Source: Verrucomicrobiia bacterium
GTDB taxonomy: Bacteria; Verrucomicrobiota; Verrucomicrobiia; Limisphaerales; CAIMTB01
Reading direction: 5' to 3'
Assembly (NCBI GenBank): GCA_019634625.1
Contig: JAHCBA010000049.1
Location: 1 to 44,504 of the forward strand
DNA: 44,504 nucleotides
The stretch's first letter is position 1; each line of letters starts with the position of its first letter. Of the stretch, positions 3,849 through 30,925 are shown piece after piece. The notes beneath the pieces were generated by a model. That model did not search any database and was not told the origin of the DNA. It was given only the letters and a program-made list of their open reading frames with translations. A program made the position numbers and the translations under genes.

Positions 3849-5498
3849 TCACTCGGGCACCGCCAGAATCTGTCCGTCCCGCTCCAACCGCTCCCGCAAC
3901 GCCTCGTAGGGAACGTCCTGCACGGGTACCCCTCGATCGAGGGCCAACACCGCCGCCGTGGCCGCCGACTGGCCGAGAATCATGAACACCGGCTCCATCC
4001 GTATCGACCCGAAGGCGATGTGGGAACTCGAGACACAAACCGGCACCAGCAGGTTCTCCACCTCGTCCCGTCTCGGAACCAGCGACCCGTAGGCAATCGG
4101 GTAGGGCCCCGGGGTCGGAACCCCGATGTCCCCTTCATTTTGAACCCAACCCTCCGGCGTGATGTATCGCTGCACATTGTGCGAATCGATCGTGTACGAA
4201 CCCATCCCCACCGGGTCGGGCGTCGGGCGGCGCCGGAGCAGTTCATTCTCGGTCATCACGTGCATCCCGGCCATCCGCCGCGCCTCCCGCACATACAACT
4301 GGTGCGGCCAGTGCCCGTTCCCGGGGAACTCGTCCTTCGCCAGTCCCCATTCCGCCATCCGCTCCCGCACCTCCGCCGGAACGCGCGGATCGTTGGCGAT
4401 GAAATGGAACCACCCCTTCTGATACCGCTCGTGTTCCCGCACAATCTCCCGGCGCCGCGCATACGAGGCCTCGGGATAGTCGTAGTTCGCCCCGATGTGG
4501 TCCGTGCTCATCGGACCATGGTTGTTGGTGTCGGTCTTCGCATTCGGCACGGGGTCGAACTTGTGAAACGTCTCCCGCCACCCCGCCTCGAAGATCCGCA
4601 GCAGCAGCTCGTACTCGTCCGGATCGTATCCCCGGGGACGCGGAAACGGCACCCGGTTGTCCGGGTGCCGCGTCAGGCACAACCGGAAACAGTAGGCCTG
4701 CACGCGGTGATCCCCCGCCCCGTACTCCCCCGGCGGCTCCACGCTGATCCGCGGCAGCACCCCGCTGGAGGGATCCCCGGGAACCCGGTAAGGGCTGATC
4801 GGCCGCGGCAGGACTCCGAAATGATGCCGGTGATGCAGCACGCCCGTCTGAACCCCCGCCCACTCCTCGCCGTACACGGCTCGCGCCTCCCGCCCGACGT
4901 GATACGACACGCCCGCCGCCGCCATCAAATCGCCCTCGTAGCCGGCATCGATGAACATCCGCCCCCGGTAGGTGCGGCCGCTCTGCATGGTCACCGCCAC
5001 GATCCGCCCGTCCTCCTTCCGTACCCCGTGTTCGCGGTCCAGCCATTCGTCCCGATGCACCGGGATCCCGTGCTCGGCCACCAGGGCCTCGAAAATCCCC
5101 TCCGCCACGTGCGGCTCAAAGATCCACATCGTCCGCTGCGCCCCATCGATGGCCGGCGTGCCCTGGCCCCGGTTCCCATACTCGTCCCGCCGCTGCCACC
5201 GCCACGCGCCCGGATCCTGATAATGCCGCCACACCCGGTGATAGAACTCCCGGGCCAAACCCCCGATCACCGCCTTGTTCCCCGTGTCCGTGAAACCCAG
5301 GCCGCCGCTCGACAACCCGCCCAGGTGCCGGTCCGGCCCCACCACAATGACCGACCGTCCCATCCGCTGCGCCTGCACCGCCGCCATCACCCCGGCTGAC
5401 GTGCCGCCATAGACCACCACGTCGTATTCCGTCCCCCTCACCCCTCCGCCAAGCGCCAGCAGCGCGCCAAGGAATCCCGTCAAGGCCCGCGTCCTCAC
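3849..5498 (-). CDS. Secreted FAD-dependent oxidoreductase (FAD_oxidored family)
   Basis: A 549-residue protein from the GTG at 5498. This GTG overlaps the TGA of the prepilin gene (GTGA), the arrangement of a translationally coupled pair. An ATG at 5513 would add five residues. A signal peptide (about residues 1-22) is followed at once by the FAD-binding Rossmann motif [20 protein letters not shown], then a segment with [16 protein letters not shown] and an internal region with [17 protein letters not shown], all typical of the FAD_oxidored family common in PVC and Bacteroidota polysaccharide degraders (sometimes labelled xanthan lyase). The physiological substrate is unknown. The enzyme is probably periplasmic and oxidises a sugar or related compound. 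Confidence 0.8.
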
Positions 5499-6361
5499 GG
5501 CAGCTCCCGCCATCGCGTGTGCTTGTACCGGTCGTACACCCACCGGTAATCCCGGTTCACCCTCAGGTTGCCCCCGGCCCAGTTGAAGACGCTCCGTCCC
5601 TCCGCCGAATCCCGGGCCGCCTTCAGGGTCGTCGCCTCCACCCACTTCCGCGATTCCGCGTGGCCATCCGCAAAACTCAACGTGCTGATGTTCCCATGAA
5701 ACACCGCAAATGGGTCCACCCAGCTCGGCGGATTCACATTGATGACCCACGTGCCACGGTTGTAGTCCCGCGGATCCGCCTCCTCCAGAAACACGATCGC
5801 CTCCGACGGACCCGGTACCGACGTCATCTTCTCGTACGGCGTCTGCGCCCCGCCTTCCCAACCCATGATCCCGTTCATCCCGTTCGCCTTCGAGTAGCTG
5901 TCGAACGCCCATCCCCGCCCCGGCCGCAGCCGCTTCGTCCGCAGATCCCCCGGACAATGGTAGGTCCCGTAACTCGACGCGTACTTCCACAACGGACCGT
6001 TCGACAGCCCCGCCTGGACCCGCGTCATCGCCTGCTCGATCGTGATCCCCGGCGTGATGTCCGGCCGCGGCCCCGGCCAGTACCCGCCCCCGAACATGTT
6101 CCCCACCACCACCCCCCGCGCGTCCCGCGGCTCGGTCGGCTGCATCACGTCCTCGTGGTCATCCGCATACAGCACGAAGGACAGCCCCAACTGACGCTGG
6201 TTGTTCAGGCAGCTCGCCCCGGTGGCCTTCTGTTTCGCATTGGCCAGCGCGGGCAGCAGCAGGCTGGCCAGGATCGCGATGATCGCGATCACCACCAGCA
6301 ACTCGATCAGGGTGAACCCGCCCCGGAACGGCGGACGACGAAGTATCGGCGGATGACTCAT
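5495..6361 (-). CDS. Prepilin-type N-terminal methylation domain protein (pseudopilin-like)
   Basis: A 288-residue protein from the ATG at 6361; in-frame codons to 6388 would add nine residues ahead of it. The class III signal is clear: a basic leader ending RGG, then [20 protein letters not shown], with Gly15/Phe16 as the prepilin peptidase site and Glu at mature position 5. The C-terminal part carries [17 protein letters not shown], the sequence that ends many of the numerous H-X9-DG type secretion pseudopilin-like proteins of Verrucomicrobiota and Planctomycetota. These proteins occur in large paralogous families of unclear function and need not be pilus subunits. The stop overlaps the FAD oxidoreductase start by 4 nt. 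Confidence 0.85.
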
Positions 6362-26071: not shown

Positions 26072-28159
26072 CTAAACCTGCGCCATCGGACGGGGCTCCG
26101 GCAGTTCATCCCCGAAATCGCCTCGCACGCCATCCCCCCCGATGCCGGCGCCGAAGGCGATCGGCGTGCCGCAGGGGACGAGTTCCGGCACCGGCATGGT
26201 CCCGACGGACGGATGCCGACCGACCCACCCGGTGGCCTCCAGGGTTCCCGCCAGCCTCAAGTCCGGACGACGGTACAAGGTCATCGACACCTTCTCGTTC
26301 CGCCGTATGCACTCCTTGATGGATCTCGGATCCCGCGCGCAATGCAGCAGCGTCTTCCACGAATAAATGTGCTTGGGCTTGTGGAAATCGCTGTTCGCCA
26401 GAAAGGGCAGTTGCTTCAACGCGACGGGCGCGAAGACGTTGTTGCGGTTGGCAATCTCCCACGCGTCGAGCAACGGAGCGTACGTGTCGAGGTTCTCCCA
26501 AAGGTGCAGCGTGTTCTTCCCCCACTCGCTCTTCATCAGATGCGGATGCGATGCCACCGCCAGCCCCCCTTGCCCGTGGATGGCCGCGATGGTGTCCACC
26601 AGGTCCAGATCGGGCGCGATCGGGCCCTTCAGATCCAGCCCGAGCAGATGGGCCGACGACTTCCTCCGGTAGCCGTCCTTGTTGAACTCGATCCCCGCCA
26701 GGACCAGCATGCCGTACCGTTCCAACGCCCGCGCCGCCTCGCGTCGGATCACTTCAAAATACTCCTCCACCTGCGCCGAACTCAGGGTCAGCCGGCTCAG
26801 CCGGGAGAGCTTCCCAAGCAACCGCCGGGGATCGGCCAGGTGGTCGGTGATGCAGATGCAGTCGAACCCGCGCGTTCCGTAATAATCCACCACCTCCGCC
26901 ACCGTGAGACGCCCGTCCGAGTAGTTCGTGTGAATGTGGAAATCGCAGAGCAGCGGCCCGCCCAGGGCGGTCGCCCCCCTGCCGCCCAGCCTCCCATCCT
27001 CCCGCACCCCCCCCTGCCATTCGCACCCCGCACGCGCCTGAACCCTCCCACGCGGCCGGGGTTCCTCCTCCGCCAGCATGCGCTCGACAATCCGGAATGC
27101 CGCCCCCGGCCGGTTGGCCCGCCCCAGATTCGAACGCCACTCGCACCACCGCCGTGCGTCGTTCGCAAACGCCCCCTCCACCGCCGCCACCGTCGCCCGA
27201 CGCCCGTCCGCCACCACCCCGAATCCTGATTCCACCACCAGCCGCGCATTCCCTTCCTCATGCCCCGGAATGGTCCGGTTCAGGATCATCGGGCACTCCG
27301 CCGCAATCGCCTCCTGCACCGTCGCGCCCCCCGCCTTGGTGATCACCACATGATGGGTCCGCAGCAGACGCGGCATCAGATTGGTCCACCCCAGAATCCG
27401 TACCCGCCCGTCACCTCCAAACCTCCCGAACAGCTCCGCCTTCAAATCGCTGTCCCGCCCCGTCGTCACCGTCACCCGGACATGCCGCACCCGCAGCAGG
27501 TCGTCCACCAACCGCTCCACTTTTCCACCCGCTCCCCCGGCCAGACACAACACCCGCCGGACCTGACCCTCCACCGGGGGTTCCAACTCCGGTGCGGGCT
27601 CTTCCACAAACAGCGGACTGACCGGAAACCCGGTAACCGCAATCCGGTCGTCCGAGACGCCCGCCCCCCGCAACACCTCCGCCGTGGCCTCGTTCGCCAC
27701 ACAGTAAAGATCGGTGTCCCCCGCAACCCACGAGGCATGCACCGTGATCGAATCCGTCACCACCGTGACCAGCCGGAACGGACGCTCCGCATGGTCCCGA
27801 TACAGGTCCTCGATCACCTGGGCGTAGATGGGATACGTCGAAACCACCCAGTCCGGCTGGCTCGCTTCCACAATCGCCATCAGCGACGCCCTCAACCGCG
27901 CCAGCCATCGGACCCCGGAAATGCCCCCGGGCCCGTCCGCCAACCCGTACACCCGACGCCACACCGACGGCGCGTGCTGCACCACGCCCAGATAGGCCGA
28001 CTGTATCCACCGGTTCACCCGGCCGTAGGCGATCTCCAAGGGATCGTGAACCTCCGCCCGAACCTCGGGACCCAGCCGTTCCAGCGCCTCCCGCAGATGC
28101 CTCGCCGCCGCGTTGTGCCCGTCTCCAAAACCCGCCGTAAGGATGAGGACCTTGTTCAC
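26072..28159 (-). CDS. Fusion protein: MGDG-synthase-type glycosyltransferase plus PHP phosphoesterase domain
   Basis: A 695-residue protein from the GTG at 28159, chosen because homologous N-termini begin at KVLILTAGFGDGHNAAA; the longer frame to 28210 starts with TTG. Residues 1 to about 355 are a GT-B glycosyltransferase of the MGDG synthase/processive diacylglycerol glucosyltransferase type: glycine-rich GFGDGHNAAARHL at the N-terminus and the nucleotide-sugar-binding VITKAGGATVQEAIAAECP near 272. A basic, Gly-rich linker runs from about 360 to 402. Residues about 405-690 are a PHP domain with the metal ligands intact: DFHIHTNYSDG, CITDHLAD, GIEFNK, SHPHLM and ANSDFHK (about 588). The N-terminus would glycosylate a lipid at the inner membrane; the C-terminus would hydrolyse a phosphoester. 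It is 137 bp downstream of the cmk pair. Confidence 0.82.
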   Translation of the reverse strand: MNKVLILTAGFGDGHNAAARHLREALERLGPEVRAEVHDPLEIAYGRVNRWIQSAYLGVVQHAPSVWRRVYGLADGPGGISGVRWLARLRASLMAIVEASQPDWVVSTYPIYAQVIEDLYRDHAERPFRLVTVVTDSITVHASWVAGDTDLYCVANEATAEVLRGAGVSDDRIAVTGFPVSPLFVEEPAPELEPPVEGQVRRVLCLAGGAGGKVERLVDDLLRVRHVRVTVTTGRDSDLKAELFGRFGGDGRVRILGWTNLMPRLLRTHHVVITKAGGATVQEAIAAECPMILNRTIPGHEEGNARLVVESGFGVVADGRRATVAAVEGAFANDARRWCEWRSNLGRANRPGAAFRIVERMLAEEEPRPRGRVQARAGCEWQGGVREDGRLGGRGATALGGPLLCDFHIHTNYSDGRLTVAEVVDYYGTRGFDCICITDHLADPRRLLGKLSRLSRLTLSSAQVEEYFEVIRREAARALERYGMLVLAGIEFNKDGYRRKSSAHLLGLDLKGPIAPDLDLVDTIAAIHGQGGLAVASHPHLMKSEWGKNTLHLWENLDTYAPLLDAWEIANRNNVFAPVALKQLPFLANSDFHKPKHIYSWKTLLHCARDPRSIKECIRRNEKVSMTLYRRPDLRLAGTLEATGWVGRHPSVGTMPVPELVPCGTPIAFGAGIGGDGVRGDFGDELPEPRPMAQV

Positions 28160-28240
28160 GCGCCCCAAGCCTGTCGCGGCCCTGTCACAACCCCGCGGCG
28201 GCCGGGTCAAGAGTCATTCACATTTCACCCCGGCCCCGGC

Positions 28241-28312
28241 ACCGCCGATCACACCGCCGATCACACCGCCGATCACACCGCCGATCACACCGCCGATCAC
28301 ACCGCCGATCGC
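28241..28312. repeat. 12-bp tandem repeat, six units (ACCGCCGATCAC)
   Basis: Five perfect ACCGCCGATCAC units and a sixth ending GATCGC. The TGA of the downstream cytidylate kinase (28297-28299) lies inside the array, so expansion or contraction by whole units leaves the stop in place. On the minus strand the unit reads GTGATCGGCGGT. It occupies half of the spacer before the glycosyltransferase-PHP gene. Confidence 0.95.
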
Positions 28313-28956
28313 ACAGCCGTGACAATCGCTTCCACCAGTTCCTCGGGCGCCCGCCCCGTCGTGTCGATCCGTACAGCCCCCAGCCCAAGCATCAGCGGCG
28401 CCGCCGCCCTCTGACTGTCCTGCCGGTCGCGGTAGCCCAGATCGTCGTCCATCCCCTGGGCCCGGCGCCGACGCGCCCGCTCCTCGGCCGAGGCGTCCAG
28501 CCAGAACTTATGGTCCGTCTCGGGAAAGACGTTCGTCGCAATGTCCCGCCCTTCCATCACCAACCCCCCGTACTGCGCACAGTCCCGCTGGATCCGCTTC
28601 ATCCATGCCCGCACCGCCGGCACCACCGCCACGTCCGATGCCGCCTCGCTCACCGCCCGGCTGCGCAGTTCGCCCACCGGACGATACCCGTCCACCAGCA
28701 GCACCACCTCCGCCGGCTCGCCTTCCATCCAGTGCAGCCGCGTCTTCCAACGCCGGCACGCCGCCGCGATCCGCCGCGGCTCCCGCACATCCACCCCGGT
28801 CTGCAAACAGTGCCACGCCAGCGTCCGGTACATCGCGCCCGTATCCACATAGGCGTACCCCAGCGCCCGGGCCACCCCCCGCGCCACCGTGCTCTTCCCG
28901 GCCGCTCCGGGGCCGTCGATCGCCACCACCCGCGATGTCCTCGCTGTCGCCGTCAC
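28297..28956 (-). CDS. cmk: Cytidylate kinase, second copy of a tandem pair
   Basis: A 219-residue (d)CMP kinase. The GTG start at 28956 overlaps the TGA of the upstream cmk (GTGA). It keeps the P-loop IDGPGAAGKSTVARG, the CMP-binding DTGAMYRTLAWHCL, VMEGRDIATNVFPE and the LID-like YRDRQDSQRAAAPL. It differs from its neighbour throughout, roughly 40 percent identical by eye, so the duplication is old or one copy was acquired. Both keep catalytic residues. The function is phosphorylation of CMP and dCMP for nucleotide supply; a divergent substrate for one copy is possible. The C-terminus ends in a 12-bp repeat array. Confidence 0.88.
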   Translation of the reverse strand: MTATARTSRVVAIDGPGAAGKSTVARGVARALGYAYVDTGAMYRTLAWHCLQTGVDVREPRRIAAACRRWKTRLHWMEGEPAEVVLLVDGYRPVGELRSRAVSEAASDVAVVPAVRAWMKRIQRDCAQYGGLVMEGRDIATNVFPETDHKFWLDASAEERARRRRAQGMDDDLGYRDRQDSQRAAAPLMLGLGAVRIDTTGRAPEELVEAIVTAVRSAV

Positions 28957-29606
28957 AGCCCCAGGCGCCTCCTCATCGACTCGTACTGAGCCAGCAAATA
29001 CTCCGCCGTCACCGCCGGACTCTCGTGGGAATTGTCCACCTCGATCGCATCCTCCGCCCTCTTCATCGGTGCCGCCGCCCGCTGCGCGTCCCGCCGGTCC
29101 CGCTCCGCCGTGTTGTCCGCCGAACCCTCCGCCTTGCGCCGAAGCGCCCGCACCTCCGCATTCGCCGACAGGAAAAACTTGAACGGCGTCTCCGGAAACA
29201 CATGCGTCCCCACATCCCTCCCGTCCATCACCAGATTCCCAAACCGCAGGCATTCCCGCTGCGTCCGCACCATCCAGATCCGCACCCCGGCCATCGGCGA
29301 GACCCGCGCCACGGTGTTCGAGACCTCGTCCGAGCGGATCTCAACCGCCGGGTAATACCCGTCCACCAGCAACCGCACCTCCCCCTCCTGCACCGCCAGT
29401 TCCACCGGCCAGGCCCGCACCGTCGCCAGCACTGCCGCGGCGTCGTTTACGTCCACGCCGCTCCGCAGGCAGTGCCACGTCAACGTCCGGTACATCGCCC
29501 CGGTGTCCACCAGCAGAAAACCCAGCTTCCCCGCCAGATACCGCCCGCAGGTCCCCTTGCCGCTCGCACTCGGACCATCAATGGCAATCACTATCGCGTT
29601 CTTCAT
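28953..29606 (-). CDS. cmk: Cytidylate kinase, first copy of a tandem pair
   Basis: A 217-residue (d)CMP kinase with P-loop IAIDGPSASGKGTCGRYLA, DTGAMYRTLTWHCLRSG, VMDGRDVGTHVFPE and ERDRRDAQRAAAPM. The ATG at 29606 overlaps the TGA of aroA (ATGA), and its own TGA overlaps the GTG of the second cmk, so three genes are translationally coupled. The order aroA-cmk is widespread in bacteria and supports this as the ancestral copy. The C-terminal NSHESPAVTAEYLLAQYESM is ordinary for the family. Confidence 0.92.
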   Translation of the reverse strand: MKNAIVIAIDGPSASGKGTCGRYLAGKLGFLLVDTGAMYRTLTWHCLRSGVDVNDAAAVLATVRAWPVELAVQEGEVRLLVDGYYPAVEIRSDEVSNTVARVSPMAGVRIWMVRTQRECLRFGNLVMDGRDVGTHVFPETPFKFFLSANAEVRALRRKAEGSADNTAERDRRDAQRAAAPMKRAEDAIEVDNSHESPAVTAEYLLAQYESMRRRLGL

Positions 29607-30925
29607 GCCGTCCCGTCTCCCGCCAAAGCTTCCTCCGCGCCAATCCGCCGCCCGGTCACCGGCTCGTACAATCCCACCCCCAGCCCTTCCGGAACCGGAG
29701 CCGCCAGCTTGGCGAAGAAGTTCGGAAAGGTCTTTCCCACACACGCCGGATCCCGCAGCCGGATCCCCGCAACCCGCAGCCCCAGCACCGCAAAGGCCAT
29801 CGCCATCCGATGATCCCCGTACGTCTCGATCTCCGCCCCATGCAACCGCTCCGCCGGATGCACCGTCAGCATGTCCCCCTCCTCCTCCACCCGCACCCCG
29901 CACTTCCCCAGTTCGGTCCGCAACGCCGCCACCCGCTCGCACTCCTGGACCCGCAACCGCCCCAGCTCCGTGAAGCGCACCGGCCGCTCCGCCATCGGCG
30001 CCAGCACCACCGCCGTAAGAATGCTGTCCGCAAGATCCGTCCGACGCGATATCTCCGCCGGCAACGGCAGGTACCCCGGAAACGCCGCGTCCGCCTGCCA
30101 CCCCGACGTCGGCCATCGTTCCACCTCCACCCGTCCCGCCCGCCGTGTCCCCTCCCCAAGCACCGCGTCGGCCCCCCAGAAATAACTCCCGCTCGAGGCG
30201 TCCGCCTCCACCTCGAACACCCCGCCCGCCTCCGGAAACACATCCGCCATCCGCCGCGTCATCTCCACGTACGGCAACTCCTCCTCCGCCGCCCCTTCCA
30301 CCGTCACGTCCCACCCCCCAACCCGCGCCCCCAGCAACAGCGCCGACGCAAATTGCGAACTGGCCTGCGCACTCACCCGGCACCGCCCCGCCCGCCGCCC
30401 GCCCCCGTGCACCACCGCCGGCAACCGGTCCGAACCCGCCTCGATCCGGTACCCCATCGACCGCAATGCCGCGAACAACTCGGCCTGCGGCCGCTCGTGC
30501 ATCCGGTCCACACCCCGCAACCGGAAAACCCCCTCCCCCAGGCAAACCAACGCCGTCAGAAATCGCGCCGCCGTCCCCGCGTTGCCCACCCACAAATCCA
30601 CCGGCGCCGAACCGGTCCCACCAGCCACCGGACCCCGCCCGGTTCCCAATACCCGGATCGTCCGGTTCGCGCCCTCCGCCGGGTCGGGATCGACCCGCAC
30701 CTCGTATCCCAGCCGGCGCAGCGCCTCCACCATGACCCGGGTGTCCTCACTCCACAGCGCCCCGCGCAGTTCCGCCCAACCCCGTCCCAGCGCCGCCAGG
30801 ATCAGCGCCCGATTGGTCACGCTCTTCGACCCGGGCACCGTCACCCGCGCCTGCCAGTCGCCGTTCCGCCGCAACGGCTCGATCTCCAGCAACCCCGGCA
30901 ACCCAGGCATCCCCTCCCGGCTCAT
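29603..30925 (-). CDS. aroA: 3-phosphoshikimate 1-carboxyvinyltransferase (EPSP synthase)
   Basis: A 440-residue enzyme that joins PEP to shikimate 3-phosphate, the sixth step of the shikimate pathway. Substrate-binding motifs are present: VPGSKSVTNRALILAAL near residue 30, LWVGNAGTAARFLTALVCLG, QASSQFASALLLGA, RTDLADSILTAVVLAP and YGDHRMAMAFAVLGL near the C-terminus. The ATG overlaps the TGA of tyrA (ATGA at 30922-30925). Its position between tyrA and cmk gives a classical aromatic amino acid and nucleotide operon. Full length, no lesion. In place of the usual GNAGTA loop residues nothing unusual is seen. Confidence 0.95.
   Translation of the reverse strand: MSREGMPGLPGLLEIEPLRRNGDWQARVTVPGSKSVTNRALILAALGRGWAELRGALWSEDTRVMVEALRRLGYEVRVDPDPAEGANRTIRVLGTGRGPVAGGTGSAPVDLWVGNAGTAARFLTALVCLGEGVFRLRGVDRMHERPQAELFAALRSMGYRIEAGSDRLPAVVHGGGRRAGRCRVSAQASSQFASALLLGARVGGWDVTVEGAAEEELPYVEMTRRMADVFPEAGGVFEVEADASSGSYFWGADAVLGEGTRRAGRVEVERWPTSGWQADAAFPGYLPLPAEISRRTDLADSILTAVVLAPMAERPVRFTELGRLRVQECERVAALRTELGKCGVRVEEEGDMLTVHPAERLHGAEIETYGDHRMAMAFAVLGLRVAGIRLRDPACVGKTFPNFFAKLAAPVPEGLGVGLYEPVTGRRIGAEEALAGDGTA

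What the first reader, a model, noticed from the sequence alone, without database searches (positions are those of the whole stretch)
26072..28159. Glycolipid glycosyltransferase fused to a PHP phosphoesterase
One reading frame joins an MGDG-synthase/processive diacylglycerol glucosyltransferase-type GT-B enzyme (GFGDGHNAAA) and a complete PHP domain (DFHIHTNYSDG, ITDH, SHPHLM, NSDFHK). The two activities are not normally coupled. A plausible idea is that the PHP domain removes a phosphate from a lipid or sugar precursor or product, or makes the reaction irreversible. The fusion is continuous with a Gly/Arg-rich linker and no sign of a frameshift.
Basis: partly seen in the sequence, partly recalled or inferred. 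Interest (0 to 1): 0.55.

Follow-up and report, generated by a model that had tools for sequence, protein, structure and literature searches.

The report
Phosphate-starvation glycolipid enzyme fused to phosphoesterase
One bacterial protein joins an enzyme that puts sugar on membrane fat to one that clips phosphate, and its control DNA suggests it is switched on when phosphate runs out, as if to swap phosphate-containing membrane lipids for phosphate-free ones.

Summary
The fusion is real: one 695-aa frame joins an MGDG-synthase/UgtP-type GT-B domain (1-366) to a complete TM0559-like PHP domain (403-634). It is not an assembly join. In a 288-genome phylum sample, all 8 strong matches to this PHP are fused. 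Of 80 named-genome loci (best 80 of 236), 79 carry GT sequence upstream of the PHP in the same frame; one (L076) has lost nearly all of it.

(1) The gene looks like a Pho-regulon member: arrays of 7-nt half-sites at 11-bp spacing lie before many fused genes, the window's included, and before 0 of 22 unfused GTs. The same motif precedes pstS and PhoB-type genes in these genomes. pst/phoU genes adjoin the fused gene in 6 of 80 loci. (2) The PHP outlasts the GT: 9 of 80 full-length members have a degenerate GT active site (3 lack the catalytic His), while the PHP metal ligands are complete in 79 of 80.

Best reading: a one-polypeptide counterpart of the PlcP-Agt lipid-remodelling operon, with PHP freeing phosphate from a phospholipid and GT glycosylating the diacylglycerol. 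Pho control is well supported; the PHP substrate is inferred.

The parts
26072..28159 (-). Fused gene, 695 aa, GTG start: N-terminal GT-B (MGDG-synthase/UgtP-like) + linker + C-terminal PHP
27062..28159 (-). GT-B domain (residues 1-366): catalytic-base motif GFGDGHN (H15, aligned with H155 of MGD1), donor-site motifs KAGGATVQE (275-283) and PGHEEGN (298-304)
   Evidence: role of H155 from PMC7419546 and PMC12022483 (passages)
26954..27061 (-). Linker, residues 367-402, Gly/Arg-rich, low-confidence coil; 25-107 aa in relatives
26258..26953 (-). PHP domain (residues 403-634), TM0559-like; putative metal ligands H408, H410, D415, H440, E491, H538, D591, H593 (ligand roles recalled from PHP enzymes; conservation tested)
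26075..26257 (-). C-terminal tail, residues 635-695, pLDDT below 50, not conserved
28184..28234 (-). Pho-box-like array (7-nt half-sites every 11 nt) 25-75 nt upstream of the start codon; matches a PWM trained on 11 other loci, z 5.6 against shuffles

Best explanation
A phosphate-starvation enzyme of Verrucomicrobiota that carries out, in one polypeptide, the two steps done elsewhere by the plcP-agt operon. When phosphate is scarce, PhoB-type control switches the gene on. The PHP domain, a metal phosphoesterase, cleaves the phosphate (or phospho-headgroup) from a membrane glycerophospholipid or phosphatidic acid, giving diacylglycerol and recoverable phosphate. The MGDG-synthase-type GT domain, sitting on the membrane, adds a sugar from a UDP-sugar to that diacylglycerol, giving a phosphate-free glycolipid. 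The PHP step is the indispensable one: in some lineages the GT half has decayed and probably remains only as a membrane anchor or scaffold. SHOWN by sequence: the fusion and its wide spread, intact PHP ligands, repeated GT decay, 11-bp-spaced Pho-box-like arrays, pst/phoU neighbours. INFERRED: Pho induction (about 0.85), DAG as GT acceptor (about 0.7), a lipid phosphate as PHP substrate (about 0.4).
For: Fusion: 8 of 8 strong PHP matches in 288 phylum genomes are in the fused frame; 79 of 80 named loci have GT-like sequence directly upstream in frame. Pho control: half-site pairs at 11-bp period in 24 of 69 upstreams against 1-5 at gaps 0-3 and 5-11, and again at 22 bp in 19 of 69. De novo, GTNAC pairs occur at distance 11 in 15 upstreams, at 22 in 6, at all other distances from 5 to 33 in 0-3. 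A PWM from 11 loci scores z>=4.5 in 22 of 39 held-out fused loci including the window, and in 0 of 22 unfused GTs. Over 987,980 bases its best hit away from a fused gene is directly upstream of pstS (L122), with a weaker one at pstS in L123. Genome-wide, YTGTCACN4YTGTCAC (1 mismatch) gives 75 hits against 19 for the reversed pattern in 12 genomes, 5 of the 26 sites examined preceding a PhoB-type regulator. pst/phoU genes adjoin the fused gene in 6 of 80 loci: L082, L085, L092, L096, L122, L123 (family match confirmed in L082, L092, L122, L123). GT is closest to MGD1, a DAG galactosyltransferase. PlcP-agt lipid remodelling under P limitation is established elsewhere, and PlcP was reported absent from verrucomicrobial methanotrophs (PMC9239053, passages); this fusion is in Methylacidiphilum (L099).
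Against: No PHP enzyme acting on a lipid was found: one search reports 44 papers holding 3 of 4 terms (12 listed), none on this subject by its title. The PHP substrate is therefore a guess from context. If the two activities were tightly coupled, the GT should not decay while the PHP stays; it does in 9 of 80, and 6 of those genomes have no other GT of this family. The strict two-half-site box is found in only 15 of 62 intact-GT upstreams against 7 of 7 degenerate-GT ones, and the array PWM fails in 17 of 39 held-out loci, most of them Methylacidiphilales and relatives. Five of 400 permuted motifs did as well as the first motif tried. Only 5 of 27 pstS-like genes of the same genomes carry the strict box, and none of the three pstS-like genes of the window's own genome does (best array score there 6.7 bits). 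The exact three-half-site array is nearly private to the fused gene (6 of 7 matches). BtaA genes, an alternative DAG consumer, mostly lack the box.
Confidence: 0.45

Rival explanations
1. A Pho-regulon scavenger whose PHP domain releases phosphate from a soluble substrate (nucleotides, RNA, glycerophosphodiesters). The GT domain is an independent glycolipid enzyme, fused for joint expression or membrane placement and dispensable.
For: PHP is kept with boxes where the GT has decayed (7 of 7 non-redundant degenerate-GT upstreams); in six of the nine degenerate-GT genomes no other GT of the family was found. The nearest PHP models, all below cut-off, are nucleases and nucleotide or histidinol phosphatases and a metallohydrolase domain.
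Against: Does not explain why this PHP, in 8 of 8 phylum genomes, sits only on a lipid-type GT, nor why the GT is intact in 71 of 80.
Confidence: 0.3
2. One reading: PHP removes a by-product or sugar-phosphate precursor and makes glycosyl transfer irreversible, like an auxiliary pyrophosphatase.
For: Constant fusion and fixed domain order. A similar pyrophosphatase role was once proposed for the PHP of DNA polymerase III (PMC3666897, passage).
Against: PHP is retained at high identity with a degenerate or deleted GT. Most genomes with a GT match have no strong PHP match at all (110 of 288 with a match to the whole query, 8 of 288 with a strong PHP match).
Confidence: 0.1
3. The degenerate GT halves are not dead but have changed donor or acceptor, so that the fusion stays coupled in all lineages.
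For: Six of nine keep the catalytic-base histidine and vary mainly in the donor motifs; all nine GT halves stay full length, at 33-44% identity to the window GT.
Against: Three (L107, L114, L116) lose the histidine; in MGD1 its change to Ala abolishes activity (PMC12022483, passage). GT identity falls to 0.53 in degenerate pairs with PHP identity 0.8-0.9, against 0.73 in intact pairs.
Confidence: 0.1
4. Assembly join or frameshift artefact.
For: None found.
Against: Same fusion in many independent assemblies, including records titled Methylacidiphilum and Methylacidimicrobium isolates.
Confidence: 0.01

Closest known systems
PlcP-Agt lipid remodelling (plcP-agt operon; Sinorhizobium, SAR11, Methylosinus)
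   Same: Phosphoesterase + diacylglycerol glycosyltransferase pairing; Pho boxes upstream; P-limitation context (PMC9239053, PMC4796936, passages)
   Different: Here one polypeptide; phosphoesterase is PHP, not PlcP's metallophosphoesterase type; GT is MGDG-synthase/GT28-like, not GT4 Agt; substrates unproven
MGDG synthase (plant MGD1) and bacterial processive diacylglycerol glucosyltransferase (UgtP)
   Same: Same GT-B fold, catalytic His, donor motifs
   Different: Carries a C-terminal PHP; donor sugar and acceptor untested; far under the NCBIfam equivalog cut-off (158 of 500 bits)
TM0559 (PDB 2anu), stand-alone PHP of Thermotoga maritima
   Same: About 40% identity over the whole PHP domain, same ligands, Z 31
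   Different: Stand-alone; no function found in the two papers that name it (listing; passages of one); lacks the KDGxxxKSSAHLLG segment of the fused group
PHP domain of bacterial DNA polymerase III/PolC
   Same: PHP fused to an unrelated enzyme; one half may lose its catalytic residues (PMC3666897, passages)
   Different: There the PHP decays and the polymerase stays; here the GT decays and the PHP stays

Membership tests
MGDG synthase/UgtP-type glycosyltransferase (PF06925 + GT28 C-domain) | Profile match above curated cut-off in both halves | tested here: met
   71.7 (cut-off 25) and 24.9 (cut-off 22) bits
MGDG synthase/UgtP-type glycosyltransferase (PF06925 + GT28 C-domain) | Catalytic-base His and UDP-donor motifs | tested here: met
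   Window H15, KAGGATVQE, PGHEEGN intact; 9 of 80 fused relatives degenerate
MGDG synthase/UgtP-type glycosyltransferase (PF06925 + GT28 C-domain) | Sugar transfer to diacylglycerol | not testable with these tools
   needs enzyme assay
Diglucosyl diacylglycerol synthase equivalog (NF010135) | Score over curated cut-off of 500 bits | tested here: not met
   158 bits
PHP phosphoesterase superfamily | Profile match above cut-off and complete metal-ligand set | tested here: met
   30.1 bits (cut-off 26.4); eight ligands in window and 79 of 80 members
Known PHP equivalogs (RNase RNM, PolX, HisJ, nucleoside bisphosphatase, CehA/McbA domain) | Score over curated cut-off | tested here: not met
   44.3 bits or less, all below cut-offs
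Pho regulon | Pho-box-type direct repeats with 11-bp period upstream | tested here: met
   Window array z 5.6; clade-wide; motif also before pstS and PhoB-type genes; not in every member
Pho regulon | Induced by phosphate starvation through PhoB | not testable with these tools
   needs expression data
PlcP-Agt system | PlcP-type metallophosphoesterase (calcineurin-like fold; class recalled) | tested here: not met
   Only PHP is matched; no PF00149 match in the protein
PlcP-Agt system | GT4-type Agt | tested here: not met
   GT is PF06925/GT28
PlcP-Agt system | P-limitation-induced replacement of phospholipid by glycolipid | not testable with these tools
   needs lipidomics

The most novel reading that the evidence does not exclude
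The first PHP-family lipid phosphoesterase: a single-polypeptide membrane-lipid remodelling enzyme that replaces the unrelated PlcP in a large part of Verrucomicrobiota, including methanotrophs reported to lack PlcP. In several lineages its glycosyltransferase half has become a pseudoenzyme that merely holds the phosphoesterase on the membrane.
Probability: 0.35. Interest if true: 0.75.

Novelty: new variant of a known kind. Interest (0 to 1): 0.6.

Why it matters
Verrucomicrobial methanotrophs were reported to lack PlcP, so how they spare phosphate in their membranes is open. This gene is a direct, testable candidate in a culturable genus. It would be a second, unrelated invention of coupled phospholipid breakdown and glycolipid synthesis, would assign a lipid function to a TM0559-type PHP, and shows one half of a bifunctional enzyme decaying while the other stays conserved.

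Tried and rejected
Assembly artefact: rejected. Stand-alone copies of this PHP in the phylum: none among 8 strong matches of 288 genomes (the 4 other matches are weak, E 1.7e-7 to 7.2e-6). In the order, 72 of 320 genomes match: 67 strongly and 5 weakly (E 3.6e-8 or worse). 60 of the 67 have an open frame of 583 aa or more; the other seven have shorter frames, which I take for contig ends or broken frames: G375 and G482 have stops reported inside the match, and one (G490, 345 aa) is by length and identity the same gene as L076, where the GT is deleted. Homologues outside the phylum: not reached. The one genome-contig scan kept the best 80 of 236 relatives, so 156 were not seen and may include unfused forms; viral contigs gave none; plasmids gave one weak match (27% identity).

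Conserved gene neighbourhood as a functional clue: no gene recurs next to the fusion in most loci, and no cmk, aroA or tyrA cluster shared with the window appeared among the recurrent neighbours. Coupling to betaine-lipid synthase BtaA: PF11899 is present in 7 of 24 genomes, including the window's own and all three Methylacidiphilales with degenerate GT, but in none of the six other degenerate-GT genomes, and its upstreams mostly lack the box; not pursued. Positive control on pstS was weak with the strict pattern (5 of 27) and modest with the relaxed one (10 of 25 against 1-7 at other gaps); the stronger control came from unbiased scans. The relaxed motif was refined after seeing the data; the gap controls are the guard against this. 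GT-domain tree: fused and unfused GTs need two changes, but one clean split is not rejected (p 0.44), so a single fusion is likely, not shown. Rows dropped: 8 of the 80 loci with under 350 aa upstream were left out of the motif table; upstream analysis used 69 non-redundant of 71; of the fused upstreams, 39 not used for training were scored. In one search I examined 26 of the 30 site loci given, and 15 of their genes by profile (one search also held two neighbours of fused genes).

Full report
OBSERVATION. The frame at window 26072-28159 (-) is a continuous 695-residue protein. Its first 366 residues match MGDG synthase and GT28 profiles and its residues 403-634 a PHP domain, all above Pfam cut-offs. 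The closest solved relatives are TM0559 of Thermotoga maritima (2anu) for the PHP part and, for the GT part, a bacterial processive diacylglycerol glucosyltransferase (9wde) and plant MGD1 (4wyi). An AlphaFold2 model from 51 sequences (pLDDT 83, pTM 0.83) matches MGD1 (Z 35.6, 2.2 A over 312 residues) and 2anu (Z 31.1, 1.8 A over 217). The linker and the last 63 residues are predicted disordered.

DISTRIBUTION. In 288 genomes sampled from the phylum, 110 have a match to the query, nearly all to the GT half only. Twelve have a PHP match; 8 are strong and all 8 are the fused gene; the other four are weak. A scan of named genomes found 236 relatives; the best 80 were kept and their titles are Verrucomicrobiota, unnamed bacteria, or look mislabelled. 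In 79 of the 80 the frame upstream of PHP matches the window's GT; the exception, L083, is cut by a contig end. In the order, 72 of 320 genomes match, 67 of them strongly; two of these (G375, G482) have stops in the PHP. In the GT tree a single split between fused and unfused forms is not rejected (p 0.44), so one fusion event is the simplest account. The 156 relatives not kept may include unfused forms elsewhere.

PHP OUTLASTS GT. Eighty full-length fused proteins (window, L003-L009, and 72 of the 80 loci; near-copies such as L007 and L099 are among them) were aligned with 22 unfused GTs of the phylum. The eight PHP ligands are complete in 79 of 80 (L092 has Val for E491). The GT motifs are broken at several sites in 9 of 80: L068, L073, L074, L086, L087, L093, L107, L114, L116; L078 has milder changes and was not counted. 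In L107, L114 and L116 the catalytic-base histidine is lost; its equivalent in MGD1, H155, is the catalytic base and its Ala mutant is inactive (PMC7419546 and PMC12022483, passages). The other six keep the histidine but have degenerate donor motifs. All 22 unfused GTs are intact, though they were among the best-scoring ones. On the PHP tree the degenerate label needs four changes, two forced by well-supported branches. At PHP identity 0.8-0.9, GT identity averages 0.73 in intact pairs (n=65) but 0.53 in degenerate pairs (n=13), so constraint on the GT is relaxed while PHP is held. Six of the nine genomes contain no other GT of this family at E 1e-5; the three Methylacidiphilales have a second, unfused one with intact motifs. 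These genomes are metagenome bins, so absence is provisional. In L076 only about 45 residues of GT remain before an intact PHP.

PHO CONTROL. Neighbourhood clustering showed phosphate genes next to the fusion in 6 of 80 loci. L082 has pstS-pstC-pstA-pstB-phoU directly upstream on the same strand, all five over NCBIfam cut-offs; phoU in L092 and L122 and pstS in L123 are confirmed likewise, while L085 and L096 rest on similarity clustering. On the PHP tree these loci fall in at least two well-separated parts, including the most divergent pair, L122 and L123. Sixty-nine non-redundant upstreams were then scanned. With a Pho-box half-site (recalled E. coli type), 18 score 10 or more at the 4-nt gap against 0-4 at gaps 0-3 and 5-11. 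Without a full motif model, GTNAC pairs lie 11 nt apart in 15 upstreams, 22 apart in 6, and 0-3 at other distances from 5 to 33. With the refined half-site the numbers are 24 of 69 at 11-bp period and 19 of 69 at 22-bp, against 1-5 at gaps 0-3 and 5-11. None of 22 unfused GTs has the strict pair within 300 nt. In the best loci five half-sites follow one another at 11-bp steps. A matrix from 11 loci scores z 4.5 or more in 22 of 39 held-out fused loci, the window among them (28184-28234, z 5.6), and in 0 of 22 unfused GTs, whose maximum is 3.6. It fails in 17 of 39, most of them Methylacidiphilales and relatives. Related loci share ancestry, so these counts are not independent events.

IS IT REALLY A PHO BOX? 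Scanning 987,980 bases with that matrix gave 55 hits at fused genes (training loci included) and 17 elsewhere; the best of the 17 is immediately upstream of pstS in L122 and another precedes pstS in L123. Genome-wide in 12 genomes, YTGTCACN4YTGTCAC with up to one mismatch has 75 matches against 19 for the reversed pattern. Of 26 sites whose surroundings I read, five precede a regulator whose best family is PhoB (241-248 bits, below the 296-bit cut-off); others precede a PAP2 phosphatase and putative porins, and several precede genes of no evident relation. Against this, the strict pair is upstream of only 5 of 27 pstS-like genes, and the strict three-half-site array is nearly private to the fused gene, 6 of 7 matches in 24 genomes with none for the reversed control. 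I take Pho control as likely, about 0.85. Degenerate-GT members keep the box (7 of 7 non-redundant) more often than intact ones (15 of 62).

MECHANISM. In proteobacteria PlcP turns phospholipid into diacylglycerol and Agt glycosylates it, often from adjacent genes with Pho boxes (PMC9239053, PMC4796936, passages); PMC9239053 reports no PlcP in verrucomicrobial methanotrophs, while PMC4796936 reports PlcP in some other Verrucomicrobia. The fused protein has the right parts for the same job from unrelated families. That GT uses diacylglycerol rests on homology with MGD1 and UgtP. That PHP acts on a lipid phosphate is inference; a soluble substrate is the main rival and fits the retention of PHP without GT. 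Either way PHP is the conserved function and the GT an accessory.

LITERATURE. Searches for TM0559 (2 papers), for PHP domain with monogalactosyldiacylglycerol (0 papers), for PHP domain with glycosyltransferase, fusion and Verrucomicrobia, for lipid remodelling with Verrucomicrobia and PlcP, for Methylacidiphilum with membrane-lipid terms, for PHP domain with phospholipid terms and for Verrucomicrobia, glycolipid and Pho regulon (2 papers) gave listings in which I saw no description of this fusion. The library holds open-licence papers only.

Noticed in passing
window 28240-28319: A 12-bp tandem repeat (CACCGCCGATCA, 6.7 copies, 97% matches) lies just upstream of the Pho-box-like array and reaches into the end of the neighbouring cytidylate kinase frame.
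   Followed up: partly
window 28297-30593 (-): Two cytidylate kinase genes in tandem, followed upstream by aroA, prephenate dehydrogenase, Maf and a TIGR03790 protein.
   Followed up: no
L076, about 4850-5889: PHP gene whose GT half is gone except for about 45 residues.
   Followed up: partly
L092:6825-8495 (-) and L058:7919-9031 (+): A type I phosphodiesterase/nucleotide pyrophosphatase-like protein and a metallophosphoesterase lie downstream of the fused gene, further phosphate-related neighbours.
   Followed up: partly
G305 (two contigs); L075 and L077 (same metagenome bin): Two full fused paralogues in one genome.
   Followed up: no
L066:1277-1714; similar in L055, L057, L065, L071: A single-receiver protein (L066: best match PhoB receiver) ends directly before, or overlaps, the frame of the fused gene.
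   Followed up: partly
L056, L057, L058, L062, L065, L067, L071, L075, L077, L118: Records titled Proteobacteria, Klebsiella pneumoniae or Akkermansia muciniphila carry this fusion and group on the PHP tree with Verrucomicrobiota of other names, so their titles look wrong.
   Followed up: no
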